Below are positions 5,965 through 59,074 of a stretch of DNA of 64,000 nt, one piece after another. The stretch's first letter is position 1; the number at the start of each line of letters is the position of its first letter. This DNA comes from Cornus controversa (taxonomy: Eukaryota > Streptophyta > Magnoliopsida > Cornales > Cornaceae), in NCBI GenBank assembly GCA_026545225.1, contig CM048853.1, forward strand, positions 14,820,755 through 14,884,754, in the 5' to 3' direction. The position numbers were made by a program, and so were the translations under genes. Under the pieces are notes generated by a model, which ran no database searches, was not told where the DNA came from, and was given only the letters and a program-made list of their open reading frames with translations.

Positions 5965-6160
5965 GGCGATCGATCCCCCCAAGGATGGGCGATCGATCGC
6001 CCACCTGATGGTGGTGATCTTCAAGAAATAACATGGGGCGATCGATCCCCCTCAAATGGGGCGATCGATCCCCCCCCTGGATGCCTGTTGGACCCTCCAT
6101 CGCCCAAGGTCGACCGAACCTTGATAATTTTGAGTCTCCATTGCCCAAGGTCAACCGAGA
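5965..6160 (-). promoter_or_regulatory. Palindrome cluster upstream of ORF3 (Athila-out)
   Basis: Four copies of a GGCGATCGATC(G/C)CC motif lie at about 5965-5976, 5987-6002, 6035-6050 and 6059-6074; the second is the perfect 16-bp palindrome GGGCGATCGATCGCCC. Two copies of a GGTCGACCTTGGGCGATGGA-like motif follow at about 6096-6160. The cluster is conserved in order with 15524-15720 and 49867-50062. It lies between the pol stop and ORF3, just upstream of a TATA-like sequence. Confidence 0.65.
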
Positions 6161-6402
6161 GCACGATTTTTCACCCGTCTTGAGTCCAAATACCTCAGTA
6201 CACCTCTTGGCATCCTCCAGAAGCAACTTATACATCAAAAACTCAAAGAAAAAACATTAAAACGCAACTAGAATTGAAAGAAAAAGTAAGAAAACTAAAA
6301 CTAAAACTTAGAATCAAAGAAAACTAAAGAAATTAAAGGATAGAAATACATACAAAACCTACAATTTAACATCCGTAGGAGACGATTGACTCTCCGAAGG
6401 GA

Positions 6403-8118
6403 TTAAGTCGGATAGACGGGATCCGTCAAGTCGACGGACTCCACGTCTCTTCTTGGCACACATCCTTCCACACAATGTTTCAACCTTTGGCCATTAACCT
6501 TCATCAAAGTATTATCTCGAAAGCTTCGAATTTCCACGGCACCATGAGGAAAAACCGAAATCACTTGGAATGGTCCATCCCACATTGAACGCAATTTTTC
6601 GGGAAACAACCGAAGCTTGGAATTGAAGAGCCATACTTTATCACCTGGAGAGAAGGACTTTCGTGAGATATGTCGATCATGAAATGCTTTCGTCCTCTCT
6701 TTGTAAATTCGTGAACTTTCATAAGCATCATGTCTAAACTCTTCTAATTCATTCAATTGCAACTTCCTCTCTTCCCCAGCTCTTTTTGCATCGAAATTGA
6801 ATTTTCGAATTGCCCAAAGTGCCTTGTGCTCAATCTCTACTGGAAGATGACATGCTTTCCCATACACCAACCGATATGGTGACATACCGATAGGGGTCTT
6901 ATAAGCAGTCCGATACGCCCATAGTGCTTCGCTCAGTCGCAATGACCAATCTCTTCTATCCGGTCTCACTGTCTTCTCGAGAACATGCTTAATTTCTCGA
7001 TTGGACAGCTCTACTTGCCCACTTGTCTGAGGATGATAAGGTGTCGCCACCTTATGTGTCACTGAATATTTAGCAAGCAAACCTCTCAAGAATTTATTGC
7101 AAAAGTGAGTACCACCATCACTGATCAAGGCTCGAGGAATTCCAAATCGACTCAGAATATTCTCATGCATGAATTTGATTACCACCTTGTGATCATTGGT
7201 TCGAGTTGCAATGGCCTCCACCCACTTGGAGACATAATCCACTCCAACCAGAATATATTCGTAGCCAAAAGAAGGTGGAAAGGGTCCCATAAAATCAATT
7301 CCCCAAACATCAAAAATCTCCACCACCAGAATGGGGCTCATTGGCATCATATCACGCCTCGTCATTGAACTCAATCTTTGACACCGATCACAAGTCTTAC
7401 AGAAAACATATGCATCGTGAAACAGAGAAGGCGAAAAGAATCCACATTGAAGTACCTTTGCTGCTGTCTTTCTTGCACTGAAGTGGCCTCCACATGCCAA
7501 TGAATGGCAGAACTTGAGAATATCTTGAAACTCATGGTCTGGGACACATCGCCGAATAATCTGATCTGGACAATATTTAAATAACTCTGGATCCTCCCAA
7601 AAGTAACGATAAACTTTAGAGAAGAATCGATCACGTTCTCGCTTGGTCCAGTCTCTTGGCACTTTTCCCGTGGCTAAATAGTTCACAATATCTGCATACC
7701 ATGGTGTGGAGTTGTCGGACACTCCAAACAATTGCTCCCTCTGAAGTGTTTTGGAAGTTGTAGTGCATACAGAAGTTATCACCATGGTAGAAATTTGATC
7801 TTCAAACACCTTCTTCTTCTTCTGTTTTTCTTGCACCCTTATTTCATCTGTAGATTCAATCACATCTTCAGAGTCCATGAAGAAAACATCAGTTTGATCT
7901 GGAGGATTCTCAACAGCATTGAAAATATTAAGTTTAACCTTCATGTTGCCAAAGGAAATATCCATGATCCCCGACCTACAATTTATGCAAGCATCAGCAG
8001 TAGCTAAGAAAGGTCGACCAAGGATCACAGGAATGTGCCTCTTCGGATTGTGAACCGGCTCAGTGTCAAGTACAATGAAATCAACAGGAAAGTAGAACCT
8101 GTCCACTTTAATGAGCAC
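6403..8118 (-). CDS. Athila-out pol: protease C-terminus fused to integrase (no RT-RNase H)
   Basis: An open frame of 571 codons. The first part matches the end of the Athila protease region ([36 protein letters not shown]). A lysine-rich linker follows, and then the residues EQLFG, which in the other copies end RNase H. Integrase begins there: zinc finger (H...H, CKTCDRC), core with D in [10 protein letters not shown] in LISDGGTHF and E in [13 protein letters not shown], and a C-terminal GPF-type module (WDGPFQVI). It ends in the VNGQRLKHC tail shared with the other copies. The RT and RNase H domains that should lie between protease and integrase are absent. The upstream protease half carries a frameshift and a stop, so this frame would not be translated normally. 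Confidence 0.88.
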
Positions 8119-8339
8119 ATCTTCTATGATTCCTCGGGGTTGCTTTGTTGATCTGTCTGCAAATTATAATACCACCAAGGTAGGCTTCAATTCTCCCAAG
8201 CCCAATTGTAAGTAAACTGAATAGGGTAGCAAATTCACACTTGCACCCAAATCAAGAAGAGCTTTATCCACATGGTGCTCCCCAATAATGCATGAGATAG
8301 TTGGAGCACCAGGATCTTTGTACTTGGGAGGAGTACACC
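8119..8339 (-). pseudogene. Athila-out protease N-terminal half, interrupted
   Basis: This continues gag into the aspartic protease (DLGASVNLLPYSVYLQLG region) and is homologous to 12890-13106 in Athila-in. A TAA at the complement of 8164-8166 stands where the other copies have CAA (GTATTA-CAA-TTTGC). A one-base insertion near 8339-8341 (CAGCAGGTG against CAGCAGTG) shifts the frame from gag. Both lesions are private to this copy. Confidence 0.75.
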
Positions 8340-9361: not shown

Positions 9362-10870
9362 TGATAGGCGTTGAATGTTACGCATTCTAGCCTCTTAACT
9401 TATGTATTTTATTCTCTTAGTGATAGATTATTTTGTTATTTTACTTTGTTTTAGTGTTTTCTGTATTTTCAGGGCCTTAATGAGTATTTCAGTTAAAACC
9501 AAGCTTTTGGGCTTTTAAAGAAGACATCCAAGATGGTGGGATGAAGCCTACATCAAGGAGATTCACTCAACCATTTATTTCAACTCAAATCAGCCCAAGA
9601 AAGAGGTCCAAGAGAATTACAGCTGCTTAAGAAGGTTTCGGGCCTGAAGCCCAAATCTGCGCATAATGCAGTCTTAATCCCGTTTTGGAAAACGGACCAG
9701 AAGTCTTATTTTCGAGCCTCAAATCGACATTATTTCCGCGCAAGGTTGAACGAAATTTGATTATGCACACTTTTGTATTTCACGAAAATTCCGTGAATCG
9801 GACTTCTAGTGGGTCAAAAGTTGGGCCGAAGTCAGCAGGAAAAACCCACCTGATTAGTGCTGCGGGAAACCCTAATTAATTCCTAATTGGATTAGGACTT
9901 TGGTGTATTCTCTTGGGGAATAAAGTGAAGACTTGGAGGCTGAAGAGGGGGAGCTTACATAGAGATTGGAGAGTCTGAGAGGGCTGAGAAGAGAACAGAA
10001 ACATATTGCAGAGCCATTGGAGAACGAAGTCATACGCGTAATTCAGAAAGATGATGTCTTCTTCCTCAACAGTTGAAGCTTCTTCTTCTACCATGAGCGG
10101 CTAGTTCATCCACTAGGGTTTTGATGTAGCCCTAACAAAGCATCAATGGTTTGATTGTTTTAATTATTGGGGACCTTTATATACATGCATAGATTGTGTA
10201 ATTGTGAGGATTCTTATTAATGAATTGAGCAATAAAAGTCTTGTAAATTCAATCTCAATGATTTCTTATCTTGTCTTAGATATTTAGTTGTTGTTATTGA
10301 ACTCAATCTCTTTTGTTTTCTGTGATCATGAGAGAGATTATTACACAATGGTAATCACTGAATATATTGTTATGAGCTTTGATGGATTATGCCTAGAGAA
10401 GATGAACCATACTGCACCCTAGATTAGAGTAGTTAGGCAGATGGCCCATGCCAATCGAAGATAGTCCATGGCTTAGCCTTAATCATATGTTATCTTCTTG
10501 ACGGATGAAGGTGTGCTTGTAGCCACCGACACCACTTATGCATGATGTAATTCCCCTATAGTTGATTCAATTGACCATTGATTGTGGAGTTAGTGGTGAA
10601 GTCAAACACCCTAGGTTTCTCTCTTATTATCTTCATTATCTGTTTACCTTTGATTTATTTTATTTTATCTTTTTAATTAGTTAAAAATCAGAATTCTTTT
10701 CTTATAAATTTAATTAGAATTAGTTCTGTGTTCCAACTCGTCAGAACATAATCCCTGAGGTACGATACCCATTCCTTTCGATAGCCCTATTCTGCAAAGA
10801 ATTCGTTCTATTGCGAAGTGTGGAAAATTTTAATTGGTATACTTTTTGAGTCACACTCACACACGAATCA
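9362..10870 (+). repeat. Athila-in 5' LTR
   Basis: Starts TGATAGGCGTTG and ends CACACGAATCA, 1509 bp. It differs from the 3' LTR at about six sites, four of them clustered between 9713 and 9766. The primer site follows six bases downstream. Confidence 0.93.
10176..10188 (+). promoter_or_regulatory. Athila LTR TATA box
   Basis: TTTATATACATGC is identical in every family-1 Athila LTR here: 10176-10188, 19870-19882, 44517-44529, 54177-54189, and the complements of 1882-1894 and 22230-22242. Its conservation and its position two thirds into the LTR fit the U3 core promoter. No experimental start site is known to me. Confidence 0.45.
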
Positions 10871-10875
10871 ATTTT

Positions 10876-10893
10876 TGGCGCCGTTGCCGGGGA
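10876..10893 (+). other. Primer binding site, tRNA-Asp type (Athila-in)
   Basis: TGGCGCCGTTGCCGGGGA is complementary to the 3' end of plant tRNA-Asp, as known for Athila and Tat lineages. It begins five bases after the 5' LTR. Confidence 0.85.
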
Positions 10894-11014
10894 TTATCTA
10901 TTTGATTGATTGGATTTTACAGAATTAGTTTTAATTGGATTTTTAGTTTAGGAAATTTTTATATTTTATTTTTATTCTTGTTTTTGTTTTCTTTTCAGGT
11001 GCTTTTGGTAATAT

Positions 11015-15280: not shown

Positions 15281-15523
15281 TCCCTTCAGAGAGTCAATCG
15301 TCTCCTACGGACGTTAAATAGTAGGTTTTGTATGTATTTCTATACTTTCTTTCGTTTAGTTTTCTTTAATTTTAATTTTTGATTCTAGTTTTCTTAGGTT
15401 TTTCTTCAATTCTAGTTGCGTTTTAATGTTTTTTCTTTGAGTTTTTGATGTATAAGTTGCTTCCGGAGGATGCCAAGAGGTGTACCGAGGTATTCGGACT
15501 CAAGACGGGTGAAAAATCGTGCT

Positions 15524-15720
15524 CTCGGTCGACCTTGGGCGATGGAGACTCAAAAATATCAAGTCTCGGTCGAACTTGGGCGATGGAGGGTCAAACAGGC
15601 CTTCAGGGGGGGGATCGATCGCCCCAGTCAAGGGGGATCGATCGCCCCATGGGAATTCTTGAAGATCCCCACCAGCAGGTGGGCGATCGATCGCCCACTC
15701 CAAGGGGGATCGATCGCCCA
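15524..15720 (+). promoter_or_regulatory. Palindrome cluster upstream of ORF3 (Athila-in)
   Basis: Two copies of CTCGGTCGACCTTGGGCGAT or a one-base variant (15524, 15565) are followed by four GGATCGATCGCCC-type motifs at about 15612-15625, 15635-15648, 15681-15696 (perfect palindrome GGGCGATCGATCGCCC) and 15706-15720. The cluster is a run of dyad-symmetric sites about 30 bp upstream of a TATA box, so a protein-binding array is plausible. Confidence 0.65.
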
Positions 15721-15751
15721 AGGGTATAGAGGGGCTGGCCGAAAGTTTGCT

Positions 15752-15760
15752 CTATAAATG
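15752..15760 (+). promoter_or_regulatory. Candidate TATA box for Athila-in ORF3
   Basis: CTATAAATG lies 31 bp after the palindrome cluster and about 410 bp before the ORF3 ATG. The aligned positions of both sister copies are also TATA-like. Confidence 0.5.
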
Positions 15761-16169: not shown

Positions 16170-17391
16170 ATGGCACCAAAGAGAGCAAGTCACCAAGATG
16201 CTTCAAGTTCACGTAATCCTCGCCGAGCGAGGAATGATCCGACCACAGGTTCTTCACGATCTCGCCGAGACGGTATTCAAGAGAGATGGCATCCAAGGGC
16301 GTTGAACTATGAAACAACGTTTGACATAGCTGAACTTTATGGTATGTTTCCCGAGACACGATGGGGGATTTCCGACATCCGTCGTCGTCGGTCGGCATCC
16401 ATTTTTGTTCCACTATCATCTACCATTTACCCGAGGCTTGTCAAGGTATTTTATCAAAACTTGATGCCGAAACCTGATGAGCGGGATGTGCTTACTTCTT
16501 CCGTAGATGGAACAATAGTTCGAGTTGACATGTCATCCATTGCCATTGCCATGGGTTGTCCTCATGAATGCCCAGCTGATTTATCTCATATCTACACTCC
16601 TTTACCCGACGAGTTGTCGGTGGGCAATATGGTTGCACGATTGTGTGCCAACCAATTCTCCGGGCCAAAAAGGAATGCAGCTTCAAAGTCTTCAATGCCA
16701 AATCATTTATGGTTCCTTGACGCTGTGCTACTCAAGAATGTATGTCCAATTGGACATAAAATCGAAAGACGTCAAGAGTTCCTCCGAGCCTTATATGCCA
16801 TACATTTTGGGCATTACCTGTTACTCCCACAGATTGTCTGGGGCCAGATGGAGAAATTCTATTCCAAGGTTGTGGCCAAGGTACCAGACAGTGCAAGTGA
16901 CTGGGAGTTCCCATTCCCTACTATTATTCACCAGTTGCTTGTAACACAGGGGTATGCAGTCCACGAGGATGAGCTTGCCTCCACATGACCTTCATTATGG
17001 CACGCATGACTGGAACTTGAGTCGATCTCATATGCACCAGAGAGTCATAGCGGTGCCTGGTGAGGTATCTCGGTTGGCCCAAGGAGGAGAGCATGTAGAT
17101 GTACCACCACCGGTAGATGATCCAGAGGAGATGGAGGCAGAGGAAGAGGAAGTTCATGCACAGGCTGGTGGCCATGATTATCAATACTTAGAAGGGCAGA
17201 TTGCTGGGTTGACAGCCCAGTTTGGCACCTTACAGACAGAGGTCTCCACACAGTTTGGTGCAATGAGAGCAGAGATGGCGGATCACTTTCGTGACACTCG
17301 CCAAGAGCAACTAGAGATGAGGAGGATGATGCGTGCACTGATGCGCCAAGCAAACTTAGATCCGGATGCTCAGTCACCACCACATCCTTGA
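16170..17391 (+). pseudogene. Athila-in ORF3 (env-position protein), frameshifted
   Basis: The same gene as ORF3 of Athila-out and Athila-3. It is open for 272 codons from MAPKRASHQ to about 16980, where two bases of a TTT-CC stretch are missing compared with Athila-3, so the first frame ends at 16988. The rest (HDLHYGTHDWNLSRSHMHQRV, the acidic EEMEAEEEEV stretch, the coiled-coil-like segment and the end QSPPHP) continues in another frame to 17391. The central LWFLDAVLLKNVCPIGHK block is kept. Function is unknown; the position is that of the Athila env-like gene. Confidence 0.75.
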
Positions 17392-17468
17392 CAGGAAGGT
17401 AACCATCTTTTGTATATTATTTTATTTTTAGTTTTTCTGTTTAGTTTTTTTAGTTAGATTTCAAATCT

Positions 17469-17510
<42 letters not shown>

Positions 17511-23685: not shown

Positions 23686-23698
23686 GGTTGTAGAGACT
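23686..23698 (+). other. Tekay-1 polypurine tract
   Basis: AAAGGGGGGAGGT lies directly before the LTR terminus TGTAGAGACTGTGACC. Confidence 0.75.
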
Positions 23699-24883
23699 GT
23701 GACCAATTTTGGCCGGTTTTGCATTTTTCGCATTTTAATTGGAATAAATGCATTTTGAGTGATGTTTAACATGTTTTGAGTGTGGGAAACATGTTTGGGA
23801 AGTGTTCTTAAGGTTTTGGGAAGTTTTCGGGAGAATCGGAGAAGTTTGAATTTTTGGTCAAATCGGGGCCCGGGATGCGACTTAAGTGGGCCCGGAAATT
23901 CGGAAAATTTTCAAAAATATTTATTTTTGGGAATGGCTTAGATGAAATGTTTAGAGAGTTAAGGAAGTGATTTCGAGACCATAGGAGTTTTCGGAATCGA
24001 AAAAGGAGTCCGGGAAGGTGCGTTAAGTGGCCTAGGGGTATTTTGGTCTTTTCATGACCTAGGGACCTTAAATGGTCAAAATCTGCAGAGATATTTCATA
24101 TCTCATGGCTGCTTCTCTCTCTATATTGCTCCCACTTCTTCTCTCTTCCTTCTCTCTAGATTTTGGAGGTCTTCGGCTTGGATTCAAGGCTTGCCGAAGG
24201 AGGGAGATACGTAGGGGACGGCTAGGGCTTCCCTTTGAACTGATCAAAGTCGCGGTTTGTCAAAGTTGACATTGCTGGAAATTTGAGAAGTGCTTGGAAG
24301 GCCTTCATTTTCGAGGTAGGGGTGTTCTTTCTCATCTACTTGTCGATTCTAGGGTTTTGGGTGAAGTGGTGAGAGCTAAGTTTGAGTATTGCATGTTTTA
24401 GAGATGTAAGAGGGATGGGATAAGGTGTTTTTTATTCTTCTCTTGAGTCTCTTGTGTGCAATAGATGTGTATCTCCTAGTATGCATGATGTGAGTGACAA
24501 ATGCATGAGAATGTGGGAGAATGAAAGCATGTATGCTTATATGTTAGCTCTTGTGCATATATGTGGAAATGTGTTATATTGGGCATATATGTGCTATATG
24601 TTGTAAGTGAGTTAAATGCATGCTATATTTGTATAGAAAATATGTGCATTTGTAAAGCATGATTAAAATGTGCTTAAGTGAAGTTTTGTGAGCATATGTG
24701 GATATTATGCTAGGGTGGCATGTATAGGTAAATATATGTGTGGTGTAGTGGAGATAAAATGCATGCTATATGTTTTTATTAATTAGCATGTGCATTGTGA
24801 GGCATAAAATTAAATGCTTGATGTTTATATGTTCGAAAATGCATATATTGGGGCCGTTGTGAGGAAACGGGGAAGTGTGGTTG

Positions 24884-25183
24884 AATTGCCTAGAGTAGGT
24901 CAATACTCGGAGAGGGCGTTGGAGTGGTTGCGTCACCTTGGAGTAGGTAGATACTCGGTGACGGTGGTTTACTCACCTTGGAGTAGGTAAATACTCGGTG
25001 GAGATTCTAAAAAGGTTGCCCAATCGCCTTGGAGTAGGTAAATACTCGGTGATTGTGGTTAGTCACCTTGGAGTAGGTAAATACTCGGTGAGAATTCAAG
25101 AAAGGGGGCCAAGTCACCTTGGAGTAGGTAAATACTCGGTGACGGTGGTCTATCCACCTTGGAGTAGGTAAATACTCGGTGGC
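24884..25183 (+). repeat. Hairpin minisatellite in LTR A
   Basis: Seven units share the core TTGGAGTAGGTAAATACTC, in which GAGTA pairs with TACTC. Each core is flanked by arms that pair with each other: GTCACC/GGTGAC, CTCACC/GGTGGAG, CAATCGCC/GGTGATTG, TCACC/GGTGA, GTCACC/GGTGAC and CCACC/GGTGG. Units start at about 24887, 24932, 24972, 25021, 25063, 25113 and 25154. Confidence 0.8.
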
Positions 25184-25961
25184 GGAATTGGAATGGTGTG
25201 GAAAAGTGTCTCGGTTTCATGATTTGGTCAAGAATTATGTTGGGATGTCGGGTTGAGTCCGAGAGAGAGACAAGTGTATGATTATTGCCTTCGTTTGAAT
25301 TATGAAGCATGATAAGTGTTTAATGCATCCCTATATGTATATATGCATTGTTGTGAGTGAACATGATATATGTTGAATGATATGTGAAATGTTGTGACAT
25401 GCATCCATGTAGGTCGTGTCGGGTCGGCACTTAGGTGGGTTGGGGTATCTCTACTGAGCCGCAGTGGTGCTCACCCCTTTATTCTAAATATTTTACAGAT
25501 AAAGCGCCGATGACGGATGGGACATGAGTGTCCAAGTGGAACACTAGTGGTGGTTTTGCTATCTTTTGCGTTTTGAGCATTTTTGTGGCTATCCATGCCG
25601 GCTTGTGGCATGTGACTTCCCTTTTAGTTGTGGTTGTACTTTGGACATATGTAATTTGGATGTATGTATGGGATTTTAAACTTGTTGGGTGTGAAAAGAC
25701 AACGGTTTAATTTATGTAATGCCCATGGCGGCACTTGATTCATTTGATGATGTTTCCCTTATGAATGAATGGTGTTTGTGAAAGAAAATGATTCATTTTG
25801 GTGTATGAATTCAATTATGGATGTGATCTTGAGAGTGAAATTGATGTTGGAACCTTCCATTTATGTTATTAATCATGTTTGAGGGGTTCTAGGATGATAG
25901 GATGTTGATTGGGCTTCAAATGAACCATGTATAGGGTTGTTGGAGGTCCCGGGTAGTGCAT

Positions 25962-26182
25962 TTCGATCAATCGAGATGCCTATTTCGATCAATCGAAACC
26001 CCCATTTCGATTGATCGAAAGGGTGATGATTTATGGTGATTTTTGGAGTCCTGGTAGGAGGAATTTCGATCAATCGAGACCCCTATCTCGATCAATCGAG
26101 ATATTGCAGGTCTGAGGTCCCGAGAGGGTGAAAATCTCGCTTGAATTTCGATTAATCGAGATTTCATCTCGATCAATCGAGA
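25962..26182 (+). promoter_or_regulatory. Palindrome cluster in LTR A (TCGATCAATCGA type)
   Basis: Seven near-palindromes with core CGATCAATCG or its complement lie at about 25962, 25983, 26004, 26063, 26086, 26146 and 26168. The equivalent segment of LTR B has the same spacing and flanks but a different core. Confidence 0.65.
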
Positions 26183-26560
26183 TTACTATTCACAGCTTTT
26201 TCCAAAACTTCATTTCGACGTAATTTCTTCGTTCTAGATCGGAATTGAGCGTGGTTTTTTTTGAAATTGAGTATTTTTGGATTCTCTATCCAATGGTGTA
26301 AGCTTCAGTTCCAGATTCCAAACACAGAAAGTTTTGAGGCTCGAAAGTGAGTGATTCTTAAAAGTGTGGGCGTGTAAATGTTCACTAAGGTGTGTGAATT
26401 GATGTAGGGCCCATGGGGGTTGGTTAAGATGGATTTGTTTGCATTCATATGCAAGAATTAGGTTAAGCTTCTGTGGGGGAATGAGGGTAATGAGGGTCTA
26501 TTGGGCTAAATAGACAGTTTAACCTCCGGTTTCCCAGGAGTCGGGGGAACGGGGCGTTAT

Positions 26561-37425: not shown

Positions 37426-40139
37426 TGTCATGCTTGTAATGTTTTTTTAGGAGTTAAGACGATCCAATCTGGCACAAAGAACTATACAGTTATGATTGTG
37501 CGCGGTTTCTACTTGGAAGCGCTCTTTCCAGATCAGAACGACTCAAAGAAAAATAGAAGAAGATCAGATCGACATGCTCATTATTTTTTTCAGACGTCTA
37601 GATGGTCGAATTTGGCAAAAAGAAATATACAATTTTGTTTGTGGAACGATTTCTCTATGAATGGGACTTTTCAAATCAAAATAACGCAACTGAAACTATT
37701 TTAGAATTGTTGAGTCATGCTTGTTGTGTTTCTTTTGGAAGTCTAGATGGCCGAATCTGGCACAAAGCACCAAACTGATGTGATCATTTGTGATTTCTGC
37801 TAAAAATTGCATTTTTGGAATCAGAATGACTTAAATAAAATAGGATGAAGATTGGATCGATCCACTCATTATTTCTTTTGGACGTTTAGATTGTCAAATT
37901 GGCCAAAAGCAACATACGATTCTAATTGTGGTATGATTTCTCTTCGAATGAGTCTTTTCAAATCAAAACAACTCAAACAAAACTTCTTTGAAATCTCTGT
38001 TGTCATGTTCATTGTGTTTGTTTTGGAAGTCAAGATGGTCAAATTTGGCATAAAGCACCATATGGTTGTGTTCATTCACGATTTTGATTTGAAATTGCTC
38101 TTGTCCAATCATAATGACTCAAACAAAACAGGATGAAGATCGAATCGGGATGCTCATTTTTTTCTTTTGGAGATCTAGCGATCAAAATTTGGCAAGCAAC
38201 AGAGGATTTGTTGTGGTATTTCTCTAGGAATGAGACTTTTCAAATCAAAACAACCCAAAGGAAACTAGTTTAAAATTGTTGTTGTCATACTCGTTGTGTT
38301 TCTATTGGAAGTCTAGATGGTCAAATCTGGCACAAAGCACCACACAGTTCTGATCATAGACAATTTTTGCTAGTAATTGCGCTTTTTGAATCAGAACAAC
38401 TTAAACACAATAGGAAGAATATCAGATCGGTATACTCGTTGTTTCTTTTGGACCTCTAGATGGTCAAATTTGCGAAAAGCCAATGAACGAATTTGATTGA
38501 GGCATGACATCTCTAGGAATGGGACTATTCGAATCAAAGAAACTTAAATAAAGTCCTGACGGTCGAATCTGGCATATAGCACTCTATGGTGTGAGCACGC
38601 ACGACTTCTACTAGGAATTGCTCTTTCCAAATCCTAACGACTCAAACAGAATAGGAGGAAGATCGGATCGGCATGCTCGTTGCTTGTTTTGGACGTCTTA
38701 ATTGTCAAATTTGGCAAAAAGTAATGTATGATTCTAATTATGGCATGCTTTATCTAGGATTGGGACTTTTCGAAGTTAAATAACTGAAAAGAAACTAGTT
38801 TAATATCATTGTAGACATGCTTGTTATTTCTTTTGGAAGTCCAAACAATCAAATTTAACACAAAGCACCATACGGTTGTGATCATGCACAATTTTTGGTA
38901 GGAATTACTCTTTCCAAATCAAAACAACTAACTAAAAAGGATGAAGATTATTGTAGAGACCGTGACCAATTTTGGCCAGTTTTGCATTTTTTGCACTATA
39001 ATTGCCATAAATGCATTTTGAGTGGTGATTAGCATGTTTTGAGTGTGGGGAATATGTTTGGGGAGTGTTTTTAAGGTTTTGAAAAGTTTTTGAGAGATTT
39101 GGAGAAGTTTGACTCTTTGGTCAAACCGAGGCTCGGGATGCGACTTAGGTGGGCCCGATAATCCGGAAAATTTCCAAAAATATTTATTTTTGAGAATGAC
39201 TTAGATGAAATTTTTAGAGATTTAAGGAAGTGATTTCGAGATCGTAGGAGTTTTCGGAATCGAAAACGGAGGCCCGGAGGGTACGTTAAGTGGCCGGGGG
39301 CATTTTGGTCTTTTTGCATGCCCTAGATATTTTAAATATCAGTGGCAGAGATATTCATCCATATAGAACGCCTCTTTATCTCTCTAAAACTCTCCATCTT
39401 CATAGCTCTCCCTTCTCTCTACATTTCGGACCCGTTCGGCTTGGATTCAAGACTTGCCGAAGGAGGGAGATACGTAGGGGACGGCTAGGGCTTCCCTTTG
39501 AACCGATCAAAGTGGTGGTTCGGCAAGATATACATCGCTGGAATTTTGGTGAAGTGCTTGGAAGGTCTTCATTTTCGAGGTAGGGGTTCTTCTTCTCTTC
39601 TAATTGTCGATTCTAGGGTTTCGGGTGAAGAAGAGAGTTTTAGGTTGTGTTTCATATGCTTTAGGATGGTGAGAGGTGTGGAAATTTGTGTTTTCTTCTT
39701 CTCTAGAGTCCTATCTTTTCACAATTGTGTATATTGTGTTGGTGGTAGCATGTGGGTTTGAAGTGTGTGAGTGTAAGAAATTGATACATAGGCATTATGT
39801 GCTCAATTTTGGTGTATATGTGGAAAATGTGTACCAAGTGTCATATATGTGATTATATGTGAGAATGTGGTTGTTGAATACATGTTAGTTCTATGTGCTA
39901 AAATTATGCATTGAGTGTAGCATGAGTAAAATATGCTAATTTTGAAGTTGTATGCATATGAGAAGATATATGCATGTGTTATACATATATGTGCTATATG
40001 TGGTGTGTGTTGATGGAAAATATGCTTGTTACTTCTTTTTAGTATCAATGAGCATGAGTTGAGCATGAAAATAAAATATCATGTGTTTATGCATTCACAT
40101 TGCATATGTGGGAAGTTGCAGGAAAAATGACGCAAATGA

Positions 40140-40480
40140 GGTGCACGGGGCTTCGGAGTGATCTAACCGTGTTGTAAAATGTGGTAAAATTATCCACTAC
40201 GTATGGACCTCGGAGTGGACCCGCCATACTAAGGCTTAATGCCTAGGATCGGAGTATGTCCAATACTAATGACCGAGGGAGTTGTCCCGGTCATTGGATG
40301 GTTATCGGAGAATGTCCAAGAATTGTGAGCCTCGGAGTTGTCCCCTTACTCTATGGCAATCCTATTATTACTATGGTAGAATAACCTTTTGGAGTTGTCC
40401 CGGTCATTGGATGGTTATCAGAGGTGTCCAAGGTTACATGATCCTCGGAGCGGGCCAATCATGTGGGGTATCGGATAAGG
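40140..40480 (+). repeat. Hairpin series in solo LTR B
   Basis: Perfect short inverted repeats flank loops containing a GGAGT-like core. They are CACGG/CCGTG (40144-40171), GTATGG/CCATAC (40201-40229), AGTAT/ATACT (40252-40267), ATGACCG/CGGTCAT (40269-40294), ATAACC/GGTTAT (40381-40418) and ACATGAT/ATCATGT (40436-40464). It occupies the same LTR position as the array in LTR A although the sequences differ. Confidence 0.7.
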
Positions 40481-41184
40481 ACCGAGAGAGAGAGCATTTA
40501 CTTTCCTTAATGCTTTTATGTTTGAACATGTTGTACATGATTCGTGAAATATGCAATCCTCTTTAATTACATTTGTTGATTGGTTTGTGAGATTGTGGAT
40601 ATGGCATGTAGTGTATTCATATGCATTCCATGTAGGTCGGTATCGAGTCGGCACTTAGGAGGGTTGGGGTATCTCTACTAAGCCGCAGTGGTGCTCACCC
40701 CTTTATTATAAACTCTTTTTACAGATAAGGCGCCGATGACGAATGGGACTTGAGTGTCCAAGTGGAACACTAGTAGTGGTTTTGCTATCTTTTGGATGTT
40801 GTGCATTTTGTGGCTATCCATGCCGGCTTATGGCATGCGACTTTGTTTTGAGTTATGGTTATATTTTGGACAAATGTAACTTTGATGTAAGTATTGGATT
40901 TTAAACTTGTTGGGTGTGGAAAGACAACGGTTTAATTTATGTAATGCCCATGGCGGCACTTAGTTCATTTGATGATGTTTCCATTATGAATGGATTGTGT
41001 TTGTGGAAGAGAACGACTCATTTTGATGTATGATTCGATCATGAATATGATTTTGAGTGTGTAAATGATGTTGGTATCTTTCATTTATGTTATGGACCAT
41101 GTATGAGAGGTTCTAGGATGATAGAAGGTGGATTGGGCTCCAAATGAACCATGTATAGGGTTGTTGGAGGTCCCATGGGGAGCA

Positions 41185-41439
41185 TTTTGATCGTGCGAAA
41201 TGCCTATTTCGCACAATCGAAACCCCCATTTCGATTGTGCGAAGGGGTGATGATTTATAGTGATTTTTAGGGTCCAGACAGGAGGGATTTCGCACAATCG
41301 AAACCCTCATTTCGATCATGCGAAATATTGAAGATCTGAGGTCCTGAGAGGGTGAAATCTTCGCACAATCGAGATTTATTTTGCACAATCGAGATGCCAG
41401 TTTCGCATAATTGAAATCCCATTTTCACACAATCGAAAT
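41185..41439 (+). promoter_or_regulatory. Palindrome cluster in solo LTR B (TCGCACAATCGA type)
   Basis: Eight or nine units have core CGCACAATCG or its complement, at about 41185, 41207, 41229, 41287, 41309, 41360, 41380, 41401 and 41423. The spacing and flanks of the first units match LTR A; the core differs by AT to CA. Confidence 0.65.
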
Positions 41440-43703
41440 TACTATTCACAGCATTTTTCAAAACTTTGTTTCGACATAATTTCTTCGTTCTAGATTGGAA
41501 TTAAGTGTGGTTTTTTTTTAACTTGAGTATTTTTGGATTATCTATCCAATGGTGTAGGCCTAAGTTTCAGATTCCAAATACAGTAAGTTTTGAGGCTTGA
41601 AAGTGAGTGATTCTTGAAAGTGTGGGCAAGCAAATGACCACTAAGGTGTATGATTTGATGTAGGGCCCATGGGAATTGGTTAAGATGGAATTAGGTCCAT
41701 TCATATGAAATAATTGAGTTAAGCTTCCGCAGCAAATGATGGTAATGAGGGTCTATTGGGTTAAATAGACAGTTTAACCTCTGGTTCTCCGAGAGTTGGA
41801 AATCGGAGAATTATAGCATGGTATCAAACCTTGATACTAATGCATGAGAGTAATTGAGATCGTTCATGGGGTTGAGTGAACGGGTTCACACTCGGGATTC
41901 GGGGTCGGTCCGGGGGAGTCCCGACGGTCCGGGTTTCGGGGCGTGACAATTATATTGACATATTAGTTCTTTCTTTTAGACGTCTATATGGTTGAATCTG
42001 GCCAGAAGTAACATATGATTTTTATTGTGGAACAATTTCTCTAGGAATGGGTGTTTTTGATAGAAATAACTCAAATAAAAAACTAGTTTAAAATTATTAT
42101 TGTCATGCGCGTTTTGTTTCTTTTGGAAGTCCAAACGGTCAAATCTGACATAAAGCACCCCATGGTTGTGATCACGCACGACTTTTACTAGGAATTGCTC
42201 TTTTCTAATCAGAACAACTCAAAATGGATAGGATGAGATCGGATTGACATGCCCTATGTTTATTTCAGTGTCTTGACTGTTGGATTTTGCAAAAAACAAC
42301 GTACGATTCTGATTATGGCACGAATTCTCTAGTAATGTCACTTCTCGAATATAAACAACTTAAAAGAAAGTAGTTTAAAATCATTGTTGGCATTCTAGTT
42401 GTTTCTTTTGGAAGTCCAGATATTGAAATCGGACAAAAAACACCATACGATTGTGATCACACACGGTTTCGGCTAGGAATTGCTCTTTTCAAATCAGCAC
42501 AACAAATAAAAAAGGATAAAGATTGGATCGACATGCTTATTGTTTCTTTTGGATGTCTAGATGGTCGAATTTGGTAGAAAAGCATCGTATGTTTCTTGTT
42601 GTTGCATAATTTTTTAGGAATGGGACTTTTCGAATCAAAACAACTCAAACGAAAATAGTTTAAAATTGTTGTTGTCAGGCTTGTAGTGTTTCTTTCGGGA
42701 GGTAAGATGATCCAATCTAGCACAGAGAACTATGCAGTTATGATTGTGCGCGGTTTCTGCTTGGAATTGCTCTTTCCAGATCAGAACAACTCAAACAAAA
42801 AAGAAGAAGATCGGATTGACACGCTCGTTATTTCTTTCGGATGTTTAGACGGTCGAATTTGACAAAAAGAAATATACAATTTTATTTGTGGAACGATTTC
42901 TCTATGAATGGGACTTTTCGAATCAAAACAACCCATCTAAAACTATTTTAGAATTGTTGAGTTATGCTTGCTGTGTTTCCTTTGAAAGTCTGGACGACCG
43001 AATCTGGCACAAAGCACCAAACTGTTGTGATCATACGTGATTTATGTTAAAAATTGCATTTGTCAAATCAGTTGACTCAAATAAAAAGAGGATGAAGATT
43101 GGATCGATCCACTCGTTGTTTCTTTTGGACGTTTAGATTGTCAAATTGGCCAATAGCAACATACAAATCTAATTGTGGCATAATTTCTCTTCGAATGAGA
43201 CTTTTCAAATAAAAATGACTCAAACAAAACTTCTTTGAAATCTATGTTGTCATGCTCGTTGTGTTTCTTTTAGAAGTCAAGACGGTCAAATTTGGCATAA
43301 AGCAACATATGGTTGTGTTCATTCACGATTTTGACTTGGAATTGATCTTGTCCAATCATAACGACTCAAACAAAATAGGATGAAGATCGAATCGGGATGC
43401 TCATTTTTTCTTTTGGAGATATAGAAGATCAAAATTTGGCAAGTAACAAAGGATTTTGTTACGGTATTTCTCTAGGAATGAGACTTTTCAAATCAAAATG
43501 ACCCAACAGAAACTAGTTTAAAATCGTTGTTGTCATACTCATTGTGTTTCTATTGGAAGTCTAAATGGTCGAATTTGGAACAAAGCACCACACAGTTCTG
43601 ATCTTACATAATTTTTGCTAGTAATTGCGCTTTTCGAATCAGAACAACTTAAACAATAGGAAGAGGATTAGACCATTATATTCGTTCTTTCTTTTGGACC
43701 TCT

Positions 43704-48209: not shown

Positions 48210-48383
48210 TTACTTGATGCAGGAATCATTTATCCAACTTCTGACAGCACATGGGTGAGTCCAACACAAGTGGTTCCAAAGAAATCTGGTCTTACCATTG
48301 TCCCTAACTCTATGAGAGAGCTTGTTCCATAACGTACTGCCACAGGATGGCGTGTTTGCATTGATTACAGAAAGCTCAATTCT

Positions 48384-49622: not shown

Positions 49623-50513
49623 TCCCTTCGGAGAGTCAATCGTCTCCTACGGACGTTAAATTGTAGGTTCTGTATGTATTTCTATACTTTATTTCCTTTA
49701 GTTTTCTTTAATTTTAATTTTTAGTTTTAGTTTTCTTAAATTTTTCTTCAATTCTAGTTGCGTTTTAATATTTTTTTTCTTCGAGTTTTTGATGTATAAG
49801 TTGCTTCCGGAGGATGCCAAGAGGTGTACCGAGGTATTTGGACTCAAGAAGGGTGAAAAATAGTGCTCTCGGTCGACCTTGGGCAATGGAGACTCAAAAA
49901 TATCAAGTCTCGGTCGACCTTGGGCGATGGAGGTCCAACAGGCACCTAGGAGGGGGATCGATCGCCCCAGTCAAGGGGGATCGATCGCCCCATGCATTTT
50001 CTCAAGGATCCCCACCAGCAGGTGGGCGATCGATCGCCCATCCTAGGGGGGATCGATCACCCAAGGTGTTTTGTGGGCTGGCCGAGACTATCTTCTATAT
50101 AAAGACTCCTTCTCCAATTCTAAAGCTACTCCATGCATCCTAAGCCTCTTTGAACTCCAATTCAAGTCCTACATCATCCGAAAGATTATTTTCTTCAATT
50201 GGTGAGTATTAAACAAGAATTCAACATTGATTATCATCAACATTCAACATCAAACCGGATCAAAAATCACTAGTTCTCAAAGGAAGATCTCACTTTTTCA
50301 AGTTCAACATCAAAGTAAGTGAAGATTTTCTTTGAAGAAATTGTTCAATTCTTTTTGAGGGCTTTTGAAGACCAAGTTTGGGGGATCAATTTGGTGCATT
50401 CACTTGTTCGATTTGGGTGGAAAAATTGCCAAAAAGAGGAGGTTCAAGGTTACAAGTTAATTGTGCATGCCAAGTGTTCGATTTAATTCCTCAACCACAC
50501 TTTTTCTACTTCT
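49623..50513 (+). other. Athila-3 pol-ORF3 intergenic region
   Basis: Noncoding. It contains the palindrome cluster, a TATA-like TATATAAAG (about 50095-50103) and an AAGTTTGGGGG at 50374-50384. The order and spacing match the other two copies. Confidence 0.6.
49867..50062 (+). promoter_or_regulatory. Palindrome cluster upstream of ORF3 (Athila-3)
   Basis: Two CTCGGTCGACCTTGGGC(A/G)AT copies (about 49867 and 49909) are followed by GGATCGATCGCCCC at about 49955 and 49978, GGGCGATCGATCGCCC near 50023-50038 and a decayed GGATCGATCACCC near 50049. Confidence 0.62.
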
Positions 50514-55087: not shown

Positions 55088-56513
55088 TGATAAGTGTTCA
55101 ATTCTATGCATTTGAACCCTCTTTATTGCATACGTTGGTTCCGTTTTTGCGTTTACCGAGATATGTTTACGGTATTTTTGTGTTTTTGATGTTTTGCAGG
55201 TATTGGAGTAAATGGAGCAAAGTTGGAAGCTTTCTGCAATCAAGAGAAGAAATCAGGAAATGCAGCCAAGGCATCTCGATCAATCGAGATGTTGATTTCG
55301 ATTAATCGAAATCTCGATTGATCGAGATCTCATTTCGATTGATCGAAATCTCGATCAATCGAAATTCAATTTTGATCAATCGAAATTCTGCAGAGCCACT
55401 TGGCCACTTGCTCACCTGCTCTCCCACTTGCAACAAAATCCCCCTTTTTGCACGACTTAGGGAGATTGTCTGACTTGAACAAAACTTTTGGGAGCCTTCT
55501 TGATACAAGAGATATATATATTGATATATATATATATATGGTGGGCCCAAGGTTGAAAAAGAAGCCAAAAAGCACACAAAAAGGGCCATATCTCATATAT
55601 CTCATATATCTCTCAAGACACACTAGAATATCAGAGGAGAGACCTTCGGGAGAGGAAGAGAGAGAGCTGAACCATACCAAGAAGCTTCATTCTCTTCATC
55701 AATGGAAGGGTGCAAGACAACCATAAGCAACTAACTCTTCTACTAGGGTGTTGGTTTCAACCCCTAGCCATGTAAACTTGTTCATCTTTGTAGCTCTTGG
55801 GATTTATACTTAAATGTTGATTATTTAGCCTAGTGATTATGTACACAAATACATCTCTTTTATATATTCATTTGATATGGAATTTATTCTTGTCTTAGAG
55901 TAGATTTTGTCACTTGAATGAACAACATTTGCATATTCCACAAGAAATGTAAATGATGGCTAGATAATGGTATTTAATTGAATGTGTGATGTTAATTTGT
56001 ATAGACCATGCCAAGAGAAGGTAGTTTGGATGCATGTAGTGTTCACTTAGAGAGTAGAGTAATTAGGTAGTTAGTTAGGTTGAAGAGCTATGCTTGTTGA
56101 AGATGGATTATGATAGGTTAGCACACACATTGATCTTTTGATATGTCATTGAGGTCACAAGCCTAATGACATTGTTAGGCATTTAATTAATAAATCCCAT
56201 GCTTGCTACACTTATGAACATGTGAATGGCTAGTGGTGGAAACCAACCCTAGTTCTCTCTCCCCACTTTACTCTTTAATTTTCTTGTCATTTCATTTATG
56301 CAATAGTTTTTAAACACAAAACCAAAAATCTGTTTTTAGAATTAAAGTAGAATTAATCTTCCCGTAAGACAATTGCGACTAGTCCTCGTGGGATCGATAC
56401 CCTCTATATAGAACCTTATCTACAAAGATTCGTGCTCTTGCGAGTGGTTAAATTATATTTTGATAAAAAGGGCAAAATTAAGCTTACAATATAATTTAGT
56501 TCCGACCACATCA
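55088..56513 (+). repeat. Athila family-2 LTR (plus strand)
   Basis: 1426 bp, with a palindrome cluster at 55274-55387 and TATATATATATATGG near 55526-55540. The text near 56380-56513 (GATCGATACCCTCTATATAGA, TTGCGAGTGGTTAAATTATA) is found inverted at 63429-63560, which defines a second copy. Confidence 0.82.
55274..55387 (+). promoter_or_regulatory. Palindrome cluster in family-2 LTR (TCGATCAATCGA type)
   Basis: Six consecutive units with core CGAT(C/T)(A/G)ATCG, almost back to back (55274, 55296, 55312, 55333, 55349, 55370). The same motif type as in Tekay LTR A, but in an Athila LTR about 130 bp upstream of a TATA-rich stretch. Confidence 0.65.
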
Positions 56514-56514
56514 A

Positions 56515-56731
56515 GTAGCCTATCAGTTAGCTTTGCCACCACAATTGGAGGGAGTTCACAATGTCTTTCATGTTTCTATGTTGAGGAAATATGAGCCGGA
56601 TCCATCACATATTTTGGGCTGGACAGACATTGAGGTGGAGGAAGATGTATCATATGAGGAGCGACCGGTGGAAATCCTAGACACTAGAGATCAAGTGTTG
56701 AGGGGCAAGACCATTCCATTGGTCAAGGTTT
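56515..56731 (+). pseudogene. Tekay-3 pol end (integrase C-terminus to chromodomain start)
   Basis: Reads VAYQLALPP, VHNVFHVSMLRKYEPDPSHIL and YEERPVEILDTRDQVLRGKTIPLVKV, homologous to 23339-23560 of Tekay-1. It is cut on the left by the family-2 LTR and ends after PLVKV, where the rest of the chromodomain, the polypurine tract and the LTR start are missing. The open frame runs to a chance stop at 56742. Confidence 0.82.
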
Positions 56732-58987
56732 TGTTAATTTAGTTTTGTGTTAAATATGATTTAGCATGAAAATTCTCTTAAGCATGTGTAATTTTGGGTT
56801 ATAAGATTTTTCACGTGTTTTGGTACGAGCGTGGGACCCCGGATGGGTCGGGTGACCCGAAGGGTGTGTTCGGGCTCTCTAAGTAGAGGTTGGGTCATTT
56901 TGATATTATTTTTAAGGACTCAAGTGAAAAGAAGAGATAAGATTATGTTAGTATGTAATTACAAGAAAATATCTTGTAACAAGGAGCATTATTAAGAGGG
57001 TTTAGGGACTTAGTTGCAAAAGTTGACTAGTCTTGCAAAGAAAAGATAGATATATGATATGTATAGGCATTTAGTGGAAAAAATCAGATTTCTCATTTGT
57101 CTTCTCCTTTCTCTCTCTACATCTCCCTCTTACAAGCTCTCCCTTCTCTCTAGAATATCTCTAACTTAGGCTTGGATTTGAAAGAAGTTTTGAACATGAA
57201 TGTTGTTCATCTCGACATTCTCTACGATCTCTATGGATTGAAAAGTTGATTTGGAGCATTTTGGTCCGGTGAAAGATTTTGTGATCTAATTCTTCTCTCT
57301 AGATTTTGAGGGTCTTTGGCTTAGATTCGGGCGGTGTCAAAGAAGAGAAGTGTGTTTTACGTGATAAGGGCTTTGCTTTGAACCGAACAAAATCACGAGT
57401 AGACAACTTTGAGATTTGTAAAAGTTTGGGATAGCTTGAAACTATAGCTATTGAGGTAGGGGGTGGGTGTTGTGTCTTCTAATTTCAAGTTTAATTTCAT
57501 TCACTAGCATAAAATAAATGTTTTTCATATGATATATGAGGTATAAATTTTCTAAGTTGATATCCTTGGTCTATATGGATATACATATATTTCTTTTGAT
57601 TAGAAATGGTTGGTAAATGCCTTATATTACTTGAATTGCTCATATATGCAAAATGTGGTATGTGATACATATATGGGATTTTTGGGGAGAAATGATGAAA
57701 ACCTAATTTCGGGGTTAAACTTATGTATATGTTCATATAATTATTGTATGACATGCTAGAATGAACATAGGCATGTATTGGGTGCAATGCATTAAAACGT
57801 GCGAATGTATGTGCAAGACATGATATATCTTGTGTGTTGTAGTGAATTCTCGAAAATGACTCATGGGAAAGAGAGGGGGAAAATATCCCCTTGGGGTTGA
57901 AAGACCTCAACCTTGCACAAGTTGGATGGTAACCGGATGGGTTAGTAGCCCGTAACAACCAAGGAATTAAGATATGGGACTTCGGTACATATCTTGAGGA
58001 TGTGTGTGTGAGTATGAGTTCAATTCCAAGAGCAAAGTGACTTTGGATTGAGTTATGTGAAATAATGTGACTTATGCGAATAGTGTAGAATTGGTTGTAA
58101 ATGTGGTTATGTCATATGTTATAGATATGATGAATTGTGCAATAATGCTCGTCTTGTTGTTATGTGGTTGTCAAGTTACATTTGATGCATATGCCACGAT
58201 TTGAATGAAAAATGGGAGCTTTGACTAGAAATGCTAGGAAGCATGACACGTAGTCGTTGAAATATGTTTTGGTATTTATGCATTGAATATGAAATGTGGA
58301 CTTGAATGGATTGCACAACATGTTGACCTTGAGTCGTTGAAATTTGCTCATCCCCCTACACTAACACTTTCAAGACATGGCAAAGAAGTGGTTGAGGATG
58401 CACAACCATGAGTTGGATGTAGAGCTAGAAGATTTTTTTTGGTCATTTTTGTTACGACTGCACGTCTGAGATGTGGGCTAGGTGCTTTTGATTATATGTC
58501 ATGAGATTCCATGTTGGAAAAAGTTGTATATAAGTACTTATACCCTGAATGATGATTTTTGGACCAATATGTGTATTTTAAGCACGTTTCTATTTGAATG
58601 GTGTTCTTTTAAAATTTGATCTTGATTTATATATATGCTATGATTGTGGTTGGATGATGAGTTTTCATATACTTGAAATGTATAGAAGGAGAATTGTATT
58701 AGCATCAATTTGATAGGTTATGGACATTTTTTTGATTTAAATTGAGGAAGATATGCATGTTTTAGTGCAAGGGTTTAAATTCCGACCTATACCCGTTGAT
58801 TTGAGGATAACCCGATTTTTGGATGGAATTTTTATATGATTCTAATTGGGTTGGAAACTAAACATTATGAGGATGATTCATACCAAATTTCAAGTCAAAC
58901 GGATGTATGGATTGAGAGATATTCAAATTTGAAGTTAGGGTGAAGTTGTAGCTAAAACTGTGTTGCAGAATTTCGCCTGGGATTTAC

Positions 58988-59074
58988 GACGATCGATCCC
59001 TCTCATTTACGGCGACCGATCGCCCCTGTAAAAGGCCAAAAACAGCCTCGGTCGACCTTGGGCGATAGATCCCC
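58988..59074 (+). promoter_or_regulatory. Palindrome cluster in LTR D1 (CGATCGATC type)
   Basis: GACGATCGATCCC, GGCGACCGATCGCCCC and, at 59047-59066, CTCGGTCGACCTTGGGCGAT, which is identical over 20 bases to motifs in Athila family 1 (15524-15543, 49909-49928). It occupies the same position in the LTR as the clusters of LTRs A and B. Confidence 0.65.

What the first reader, a model, noticed from the sequence alone, without database searches (positions are those of the whole stretch)
5965..59074. One kind of short-palindrome cluster recurs in unrelated retrotransposon lineages
Seven loci carry arrays of dyad-symmetric sites built on CGAT-CGATCG-like cores: Athila family 1 upstream of ORF3 (5965-6160, 15524-15720, 49867-50062), Athila family-2 LTR (55274-55387), and Tekay LTRs A (25962-26182), B (41185-41439) and D1 (58988-59074). 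Three sequence types exist, and types cross lineage borders. TCGATCAATCGA is in Tekay LTR A and Athila family 2. GGCGATCGATCGCC plus the 20-mer CTCGGTCGACCTTGGGCGAT is in Athila family 1 and Tekay LTR D1. TCGCACAATCGA is in LTR B. Athila and Tekay are distant branches of Ty3/Gypsy and otherwise share no LTR sequence here. A shared binding array, such as a host factor site or a target of an element-encoded anti-silencing protein (compare the clustered motifs of VANDAL elements and their VANC proteins), is one explanation. Exchange of a regulatory module is another.
Basis: partly seen in the sequence, partly recalled or inferred. Interest (0 to 1): 0.9.

Follow-up and report, generated by a model that had tools for sequence, protein, structure and literature searches.

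The report
Shared palindrome arrays in plant retrotransposons
Two distantly related groups of plant jumping genes carry the same kinds of clustered mirror-image DNA sites, thousands of times across one plant genome and in one group just before a gene start, which suggests that both groups use the same control switch.

Summary
All seven clusters exist at the stated places; the core CGATNNATCG occurs 15 times in the window, always inside them. In the 772-Mb genome, A-type pairs (TCGATYRATCGA twice, 4-12 nt apart) occur at 26,086 places and the shared 20-mer 2,016 times; reversed controls give 0. Of 30 Tekay A/B LTR loci examined all 30 carry an array (25 A-type, 3 B-type, 2 mixed); of 20 Tekay D loci all 20 carry D-type. 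New: Athila family 2 has A-type arrays in its LTRs and also between pol and ORF3, where family 1 has D-type. So each lineage uses both types at one place of its own. In Athila a TATA-like box usually follows the internal array. Sites are better conserved than spacers in Tekay A and Athila-1, not in Tekay D. The closest known thing is the Sirevirus "RM box" (Ty1/copia). Best reading: RM-like regulatory arrays read by a dimeric nuclear factor, with modules copied between lineages. RNA hairpins remain a rival for Tekay; a VANC-like role for ORF3 is unsupported. No binding or expression was measured.

The parts
5965..6160 (-). D-type array of Athila-1 copy E1 (4 palindromes GGG[CG]GATCGATC[CG]CCC, start-to-start 23/49/23, plus GGTCGACC-type units), between pol and ORF3
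15524..15720 (+). D-type array of Athila-1 copy E2, upstream of ORF3
15753..15758 (+). TATA-like box (TATAAA) about 32 nt after the array; E1 and E3 have TATTTAA and TATATA at the matching place
16170..16988 (+). Athila-1 ORF3 (env-like position; PF20167, E 1.4e-8, below Pfam's cutoff)
49867..50062 (+). D-type array of Athila-1 copy E3
25962..26182 (+). A-type array (7 sites T[TC]TCGATYRATCGA[AG]A, start-to-start 22/22/59/22/60/21) in Tekay LTR A
41185..41439 (+). B-type array (9 sites close to TCGCAC[AG]ATCGA, the first five alternating in orientation) in Tekay LTR B, homologous place to A
55274..55387 (+). A-type array (6 sites, start-to-start 22/16/21/16/21) in the Athila-2 LTR, about 187 bp after the LTR start
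55513..55536 (+). TATA-like stretch about 124 nt downstream of the Athila-2 LTR array
58988..59077 (+). D-type array (3 sites, start-to-start 23/50, including the 20-mer) in Tekay LTR D1
23688..26558 (+). Tekay-like LTR A (ends approximate), preceded by a pol end with SH3_Tf2-1 and chromodomain matches at 23039-23638
38951..41817 (+). Tekay-like LTR B (ends approximate), followed by TGGTATCA
55088..56503 (+). Athila-2 LTR (3' end approximate)

Best explanation
The clusters are cis-regulatory arrays of the same kind as the 'RM boxes' described in Sireviruses: short palindromes, often about 20-23 bp apart, kept by retrotransposons as binding sites for a dimeric DNA-binding factor of the nucleus. 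In Athila they act as upstream elements of an internal promoter for ORF3 (family 1, D-type; family 2, A-type) and, in family 2, of the LTR promoter too. In Tekay they sit about 0.4 kb before the LTR's 3' end, where they would act as a downstream enhancer. The two main types (A: TTTCGATYRATCGAAA; D: GGGCGATCGATCSCCC) were copied between lineages as small modules, multiplied locally, and can be switched within an array (A and B) while outer arms and spacing are kept. Shown: the arrays, their genome-wide number, homologous places, type sharing, conservation of sites in Tekay A and Athila-1, TATA-like boxes beside most Athila arrays examined. Inferred: a bound protein, promoter activity, copying as the route.
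For: Genome-wide: 26,086 A-type pairs and 2,016 20-mers, controls 0. 30 of 30 Tekay A/B loci and 20 of 20 Tekay D loci carry arrays at one homologous place (A and D1 LTRs align near the LTR start and just after the array). Athila-2: A-type arrays in both LTRs (6 sites each) and a 12-site array between pol and ORF3, with CTATTTAAAC about 35 nt after it. Sites better kept than spacers: Athila-1, 9 copies, mean minor-allele fraction 0.024 in sites against 0.235 between sites (p 5e-17 for sites against between plus downstream; gaps not counted); Tekay A, 26 sequences, about 0.067 in arms against 0.181 between sites (p 1.7e-7) and 0.113 downstream (p 0.008), centre free at 0.178. At columns where CpG is common it is kept at 313 of 343 in sites against 343 of 500 outside (Tekay A), 147 of 168 against 146 of 210 (Tekay D). 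Arm positions 2 and 15 change together in both lineages. Spacing 20-22 bp in 140 of 205 neighbouring sites of 30 Tekay A/B loci plus window LTRs A and B; 16 or 21-22 in 31 of 40 Athila-2 neighbours no more than 70 bp apart. Precedent: PMC2829016, RM boxes in LTRs upstream of TATA and, for 77 of 79 linker copies, upstream of ENV.
Against: No binding, expression or methylation data. In Tekay A and B no TATA-like box follows within about 375 bp (D1 has one TATAAA 151 nt after its array), and a TC-rich, promoter-like stretch lies near the LTR start, so the array may be transcribed rather than upstream. In Tekay D sites are not better kept than flanks (0.044 against about 0.05, p 0.13). Directly upstream of the array, A and D1 show no likeness (score 22 against shuffle mean 24.6). 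Copies are related, so p-values overstate. Of six distinct Athila-1 loci, L005 keeps 2 of 4 sites and L008 3, losses that the conservation figures do not count; L002 and L003 keep all 4 but show no canonical TATA box after them. No array was found in the Athila-1 LTR.
Confidence: 0.55

Rival explanations
1. RNA-level function: the arrays are rows of hairpins in the element RNA (packaging, dimerisation or leader structure), or hairpin sources of small RNAs used by the host. The palindromes are kept because they pair, not because a protein binds DNA.
For: RNA folds beat shuffles: z -4.7 (A), -6.1 (B), -6.9 (Athila-1 E2), -7.4 (Athila-2). In Tekay the array probably lies in the transcribed part, and at arm pair 2/15 mismatches that wobble only in the sense RNA outnumber the reverse: T-G 35 against C-A 4 of 153 sites, or 16 against 4 of 75 distinct flank contexts; at pair 1/16 T-G 23 against C-A 1. 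Maize Sirevirus palindromes are small-RNA hotspots (PMC5311732 and PMC10760457, passages).
Against: D1 folds no better than chance (z -1.1). Most D-type sites have a C-C or G-G mismatch in their arms. Athila-2 shows no strand preference (pair 2/15: T-G 13, C-A 18; pair 1/16: 8 and 12). B-type sites lost the inner pairs of the single site, although inverted neighbours can pair. Palindromes fold well by construction.
Confidence: 0.2
2. Exchange only: a regulatory module passed between Athila and Tekay by template switching or recombination and was then multiplied; there is no common reader protein and the likeness is ancestry alone.
For: Athila-1 and Tekay D share 20 identical letters, only partly palindromic; 11 of 20 Tekay D loci carry the longer uninterrupted unit CTCGGTCGACCTTGGGCGATCGATCCCCC, whose two halves lie apart and in opposite orientation in Athila-1. 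A and Athila-2 arrays align over about 60 bp (score 65 against shuffle mean 24.5, sd 4.4). Athila families are known to recombine with each other (PMC2410132, passages).
Against: Sites stay conserved while spacers change in Tekay A and Athila-1, and both lineages use the same two types, which ancestry alone does not readily explain. No shared flank marks a transfer breakpoint.
Confidence: 0.17
3. VANC-like anti-silencing: an element-encoded protein (for example ORF3) binds the arrays and removes methylation, and types differ by protein specificity.
For: Concerted type change (A and B; mixed arrays in L067 and L071) resembles the C-type/T-type motif change of VANDAL21 (PMC5735166, passages). 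High CpG retention in sites.
Against: ORF3 of both families matches PF20167 below its cutoff and nothing VANC-like. Tekay element A has arrays but no ORF3 between pol and LTR. VANC21 motifs are arrayed in one orientation, and the word palindrome does not occur in PMC5735166. The structure model of ORF3 is useless (mean pLDDT 33.7), so it neither supports nor excludes DNA binding.
Confidence: 0.06
4. No function: tandem duplication of chance palindromes in long LTRs (minisatellite slippage).
For: Several arrays register as tandem repeats; LTR A has a second dyad array of other sequence; Tekay D sites are no better kept than flanks.
Against: Same cores in unrelated families, sites better kept than spacers in Tekay A and Athila-1, arrays in all 50 Tekay loci examined; two random 16-bp palindromes agree at 14 or more letters in 197 of 400,000 trials.
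Confidence: 0.02

Closest known systems
RM boxes of Sireviruses (Ty1/copia), Bousios et al. 2010, PMC2829016 (sections 9 and 10 and passages read)
   Same: Palindromic repeated motifs, clustered in LTRs mostly 200-400 bp after the LTR start, upstream of a TATA box, and again upstream of the ENV-like gene; forming CpG islands; nearly alike in some distant elements. One of them (Tnd-1, ACAATCGATTGT) contains ATCGAT.
   Different: Described as Sirevirus-specific (against classic Ty1/copia elements), with a CGG-CCG core in all but Tnd-1. Here the elements are Ty3/gypsy (Athila, Tekay-like), the core is CGAT-N2-ATCG, one genome shows the same types in two lineages with type change at homologous places, and the Tekay arrays lie near the LTR's 3' end.
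Maize palindrome CACCGGACNNNGTCCGGTG shared by Copia elements and Helitrons (PMC10760457, passages read; Bousios 2016 not held)
   Same: One palindrome recurs in unrelated transposon groups of one genome; found in regions of predicted RNA structure.
   Different: [quoted passage not shown] the passages read do not describe arrays upstream of an env-like gene or type change.
VANDAL motif arrays read by VANC proteins (PMC5735166, PMC10398659, passages read)
   Same: Short motifs in dense non-coding arrays that change together between subfamilies.
   Different: VANC21 motifs lie in one orientation, were rare in other transposons and are read by the family's own protein.

Membership tests
Sirevirus RM boxes | Repeated motif with dyad symmetry, at least eight copies per element | tested here: met
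   Athila-2 element at C1 998-1010 kb: 6 sites in each LTR and 12 internal sites. Athila-1 has only 4, Tekay D only 3 per LTR.
Sirevirus RM boxes | LTR cluster 200-400 bp after the LTR start, upstream of TATA | tested here: inconclusive
   Nearly met in Athila-2 (array from about 187 bp after the LTR start, TATA-like stretch about 124 nt downstream). Not met in Tekay A and B (array near the LTR 3' end, no TATA within about 375 bp).
Sirevirus RM boxes | Extra copies upstream of the ENV-like gene | tested here: met
   Arrays between pol and ORF3 in Athila-1 and Athila-2. In Athila-1 these are the only copies found.
Sirevirus RM boxes | CGG-CCG core | tested here: not met
   Core is CGAT-N2-ATCG; Tnd-1 is the published exception.
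Sirevirus RM boxes | CpG island at the cluster | tested here: inconclusive
   CpG count at the 95th-99th percentile in all 7 clusters; GC of 0.5 or more together with CpG o/e of 0.6 or more holds for the three Athila-1 arrays, not for A, B, Athila-2 or D1.
Sirevirus RM boxes | Host element is a Ty1/copia Sirevirus | tested here: not met
Pfam: SH3_Tf2-1 and chromodomain for LTR A's element; RVT_1, RNase H and PF20167 for Athila-1.
VANDAL/VANC system | Element encodes a VANC protein (recalled: DUF1985) | tested here: not met
   No such match in ORF3 of either Athila family; not all other frames were scanned.
VANDAL/VANC system | Motifs in one orientation, changing together within arrays | tested here: inconclusive
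   Palindromes and mixed orientations, but concerted change seen (25 pure A, 3 pure B, 2 mixed of 30 loci).
VANDAL/VANC system | Loss of DNA methylation on expression of the protein | not testable with these tools
   No methylation data.

The most novel reading that the evidence does not exclude
Athila and Tekay elements of one plant genome share a small alphabet of palindromic regulatory addresses (A, B, D) that are read by the same sequence-specific nuclear factors across lineages. Types are swapped at fixed places in both lineages, so that unrelated retrotransposons are wired into one trans-lineage control network, possibly under an arms race with host silencing.
Probability: 0.35. Interest if true: 0.85.

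Novelty: new variant of a known kind. Interest (0 to 1): 0.68.

Why it matters
RM-type palindrome clusters were reported as a feature of Sireviruses. Finding like clusters in two Ty3/gypsy branches, with the same types recurring at fixed places and upstream of the env-like ORF3, points to a wider way in which plant retrotransposons may build promoters, and suggests an internal promoter for ORF3 (splice acceptors had been predicted for Athila, as cited in PMC2829016). It gives a concrete question for a pull-down or DAP-seq: which factor reads CGAT-N2-ATCG palindromes, and does one factor serve unrelated elements.

Tried and rejected
Chance and composition: rejected by shuffles and controls. One family inserted in the others: rejected, arrays lie within each family's own LTR or internal region. 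ORF3 as a VANC-like protein: no Pfam support; of 782 candidates none scored as a homologue in the protein collection, which may hold few plants; structure model of no use, so no fold search was made. Viral contigs: 0 hits with the 20-mer and with an A-type pair, no confirmed relative of the Athila RT or the Tekay integrase. Decay of a central CpG as the origin of A-type from D-type: possible, since the centre is CA, TG or TA and never CG in 153 exact-core Tekay sites (0 of 197 in the looser count, which includes the window), though 4 of 118 in Athila-2 have CG; not tested further. A flank tree of Tekay A/B gave long, doubtful branches and is not used. A first script for Tekay arrays had a thinning error and was replaced. 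In one search the identity value for Athila-1 against D1 was computed out of register and is not used.

Not run because the genome machine was busy: counts of B-type pairs and of TTTCGATCGATCGAAA, a D-type core count, and any search for other lineages.

The samples are not random. The 30 loci lie in the first 1.1 Mb of contig C1 and come from only 8 arrays; the 12 places were picked by me from about 100 listed. All of these are Athila-2 kin. The eight 20-mer loci are the first on C1, and two of them (L005, L006) are one element. Tekay loci were found by flank sequence and are the first or best listed: 30 of 572 and 20 of 265; neighbouring ones may be the two LTRs of one element. L100 is the window's own D1.


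Full report
WHAT IS THERE. The window holds three Athila-1 copies: E1 on the minus strand with E2 nested in it (9362-20564), and E3 (43704-54520). It also holds an Athila-2 LTR (from 55088) and Tekay-like LTRs A (about 23688-26558), B (about 38951-41817) and D1 (from about 56750, uncertain). LTR A follows a pol end with SH3_Tf2-1 and chromodomain matches; the frame before D1 matches SH3_Tf2-1; Athila-1 has RVT_1, RNase H and an ORF3 with a sub-threshold PF20167 match.

SITES. The core CGATNNATCG occurs exactly 15 times in 64 kb: 7 in LTR A, 5 in the Athila-2 LTR, one in each Athila-1 array, none outside; the mean of 100 shuffles is 0.31. Type A is T[TC]TCGATYRATCGA[AG]A; type D is GGG[CG]GATCGATC[CG]CCC with GGTCGACC-type units beside it; type B is TCGCAC[AG]ATCGA. 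Start-to-start spacings are 22/22/59/22/60/21 (A), 22/16/21/16/21 (Athila-2), 23/49/23 (Athila-1 E1 and E2) and 23/50 (D1). In B nine sites lie at the homologous place of A, the first five alternating in orientation. All seven clusters are at the 95th-99th percentile of CpG count per 200 bp.

GENOME. The window lies on contig C9 of a 772-Mb assembly. The 20-mer occurs 1011 + 1005 times and its reversed control 0 times. The A-type pair TCGATYRATCGA-N4..12-TCGATYRATCGA occurs at 26,086 places, control 0; one array gives several pairs, so this counts pairs, not arrays. Of the eight 20-mer loci returned (seven distinct places), seven loci are Athila-1 or its diverged kin and one is a Tekay D LTR.

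ATHILA-2. The 30 A-type loci returned come from 8 arrays, and with 12 further places that I chose all are Athila-2 kin: the LTR or an internal place (of the 12, six LTR and six internal). In the element at C1:998-1010 kb both LTRs carry 6 sites, and a 12-site array lies between pol and an ORF3 whose product is 34% identical to that of Athila-1 over 243 aligned positions. About 35 nt after that array stands CTATTTAAAC, followed by a TC-rich stretch and a GTAAGTG. Athila-1 has the same layout with D-type sites: TATAAA, TATATA or TATTTAA about 31-37 nt after the array in E2, E3 and E1. Two diverged Athila-1 copies (L002, L003) keep the four palindromes but show no canonical TATA box; two others have lost sites (L005 keeps 2, L008 keeps 3).

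TEKAY. A flank specific to the A/B family occurs 572 times, control 0. All 30 loci examined have an array: 25 pure A (3-9 sites), 3 pure B, 2 mixed. A flank specific to D occurs 265 times with up to two mismatches, control 0. All 20 loci examined carry D-type sites, three each in 19 and two in one; 11 of 20 have the uninterrupted unit CTCGGTCGACCTTGGGCGATCGATCCCCC, 14 the exact 20-mer, 11 the exact 14-mer GGCGATCGATCGCC. A and D1 LTRs are homologous near the LTR start (score 67 against 21.9, sd 2.4) and just after the array (45 against 20.9, sd 2.8), but no likeness was found just before it (22 against 24.6). So A-, B- and D-type arrays occupy one place in Tekay, and A- and D-type arrays one place in Athila.

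CONSTRAINT. In nine Athila-1 copies the mean minor-allele fraction, gaps set aside, is 0.024 in sites, 0.050 in the GGTCGACC units before them, 0.235 between sites and 0.171 downstream (p 5e-17 for sites against between plus downstream). Between E1, E2 and E3, 2-4 of 76 site positions differ against 9-12 of 38 between sites. In 26 Tekay A sequences site arms vary at about 0.067, the two central bases at 0.178, spacers at 0.181, upstream at 0.209 and downstream at 0.113 (p 1.7e-7 for arms against spacers), and where CpG is common it is kept at 313 of 343 in sites against 343 of 500 outside. In Tekay D the sites are not better kept than flanks (0.044 against about 0.05, p 0.13), though CpG retention is 147 of 168 against 146 of 210. 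Copies share ancestry, so p-values are too small. Pair 2/15 of the arms changes together in Tekay A (74 T-A, 34 C-G, 35 T-G, 4 C-A of 153 sites, 6 other) and Athila-2 (43, 44, 13, 18 of 118).

MECHANISM. A dyad kept by paired changes, a free centre, about two helical turns between many neighbouring sites and, in Athila, a TATA-like box after most arrays examined fit a dimeric DNA-binding factor acting on promoters. The Tekay excess of T-G over C-A (16 against 4 of 75 flank contexts) and strong RNA folds fit sense-RNA hairpins there; Athila-2 shows no such strand bias, and D1 folds no better than chance. I therefore put DNA binding first and keep RNA as the main rival. For sharing, copying of a module is the simplest account of the 20 identical letters between Athila-1 and Tekay D; the A and Athila-2 arrays also align over some 60 bp.

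KNOWN KINDS. PMC2829016 (sections 9 and 10 and passages read) describes in Sireviruses palindromic RM boxes in the LTR upstream of TATA and upstream of ENV, called Sirevirus-specific and mostly with a CGG-CCG core. The present arrays look like these but fail membership by lineage and core. PMC10760457 (passages) reports one maize palindrome shared by Copia elements and Helitrons, with no obvious peak in Ty3 elements. VANC motif arrays (PMC5735166, PMC10398659, passages) share concerted change but lie in one orientation. My searches of the open-access PMC library (listings capped, some with many more papers than shown) showed no report of such arrays in Athila or Tekay; most subscription papers are not in that library.

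VERDICT. A real, abundant feature, constrained in two of the three families tested; a new variant of a known kind. The cross-lineage sharing of types at fixed places is its surprising part.

Noticed in passing
24893-25177 (LTR A) and 59317-59345 (D1): A second dyad array (GAGTA...TACTC) in LTR A; its inner 12-mer GTAGGTAAATAC occurs five times there and once in D1 with different complementary arms.
   Followed up: partly
11553-11658 (-), 20763-20868 (+), 45895-46000 (-): Rfam snoR71 matches above the gathering score, antisense to the gag region of the three Athila-1 copies; may be a retrotransposon-derived family hit.
   Followed up: no
1203-23054: Athila-1 E2 is nested in E1, which is nested in the pol of the Tekay-like element A; LTR pairs of E1 and E2 are 99.7% and 99.6% identical, so both look young.
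   Followed up: partly
37417-38538 and 41954-43707: Diverged tandem repeats of about 288 bp in two blocks around LTR B.
   Followed up: no
32238-33099: Two frames that resemble a plant F-box protein by eye (recalled); not scanned.
   Followed up: no
15971 region and L039: A GTAAGTG splice-donor-like site in the leader between the TATA-like box and ORF3 in both Athila families, hinting at a leader intron.
   Followed up: no
L067, L071: Tekay arrays that mix A- and B-type sites (BBAABBAA, BBAABAA), possible intermediates of type switching or recombinants.
   Followed up: partly
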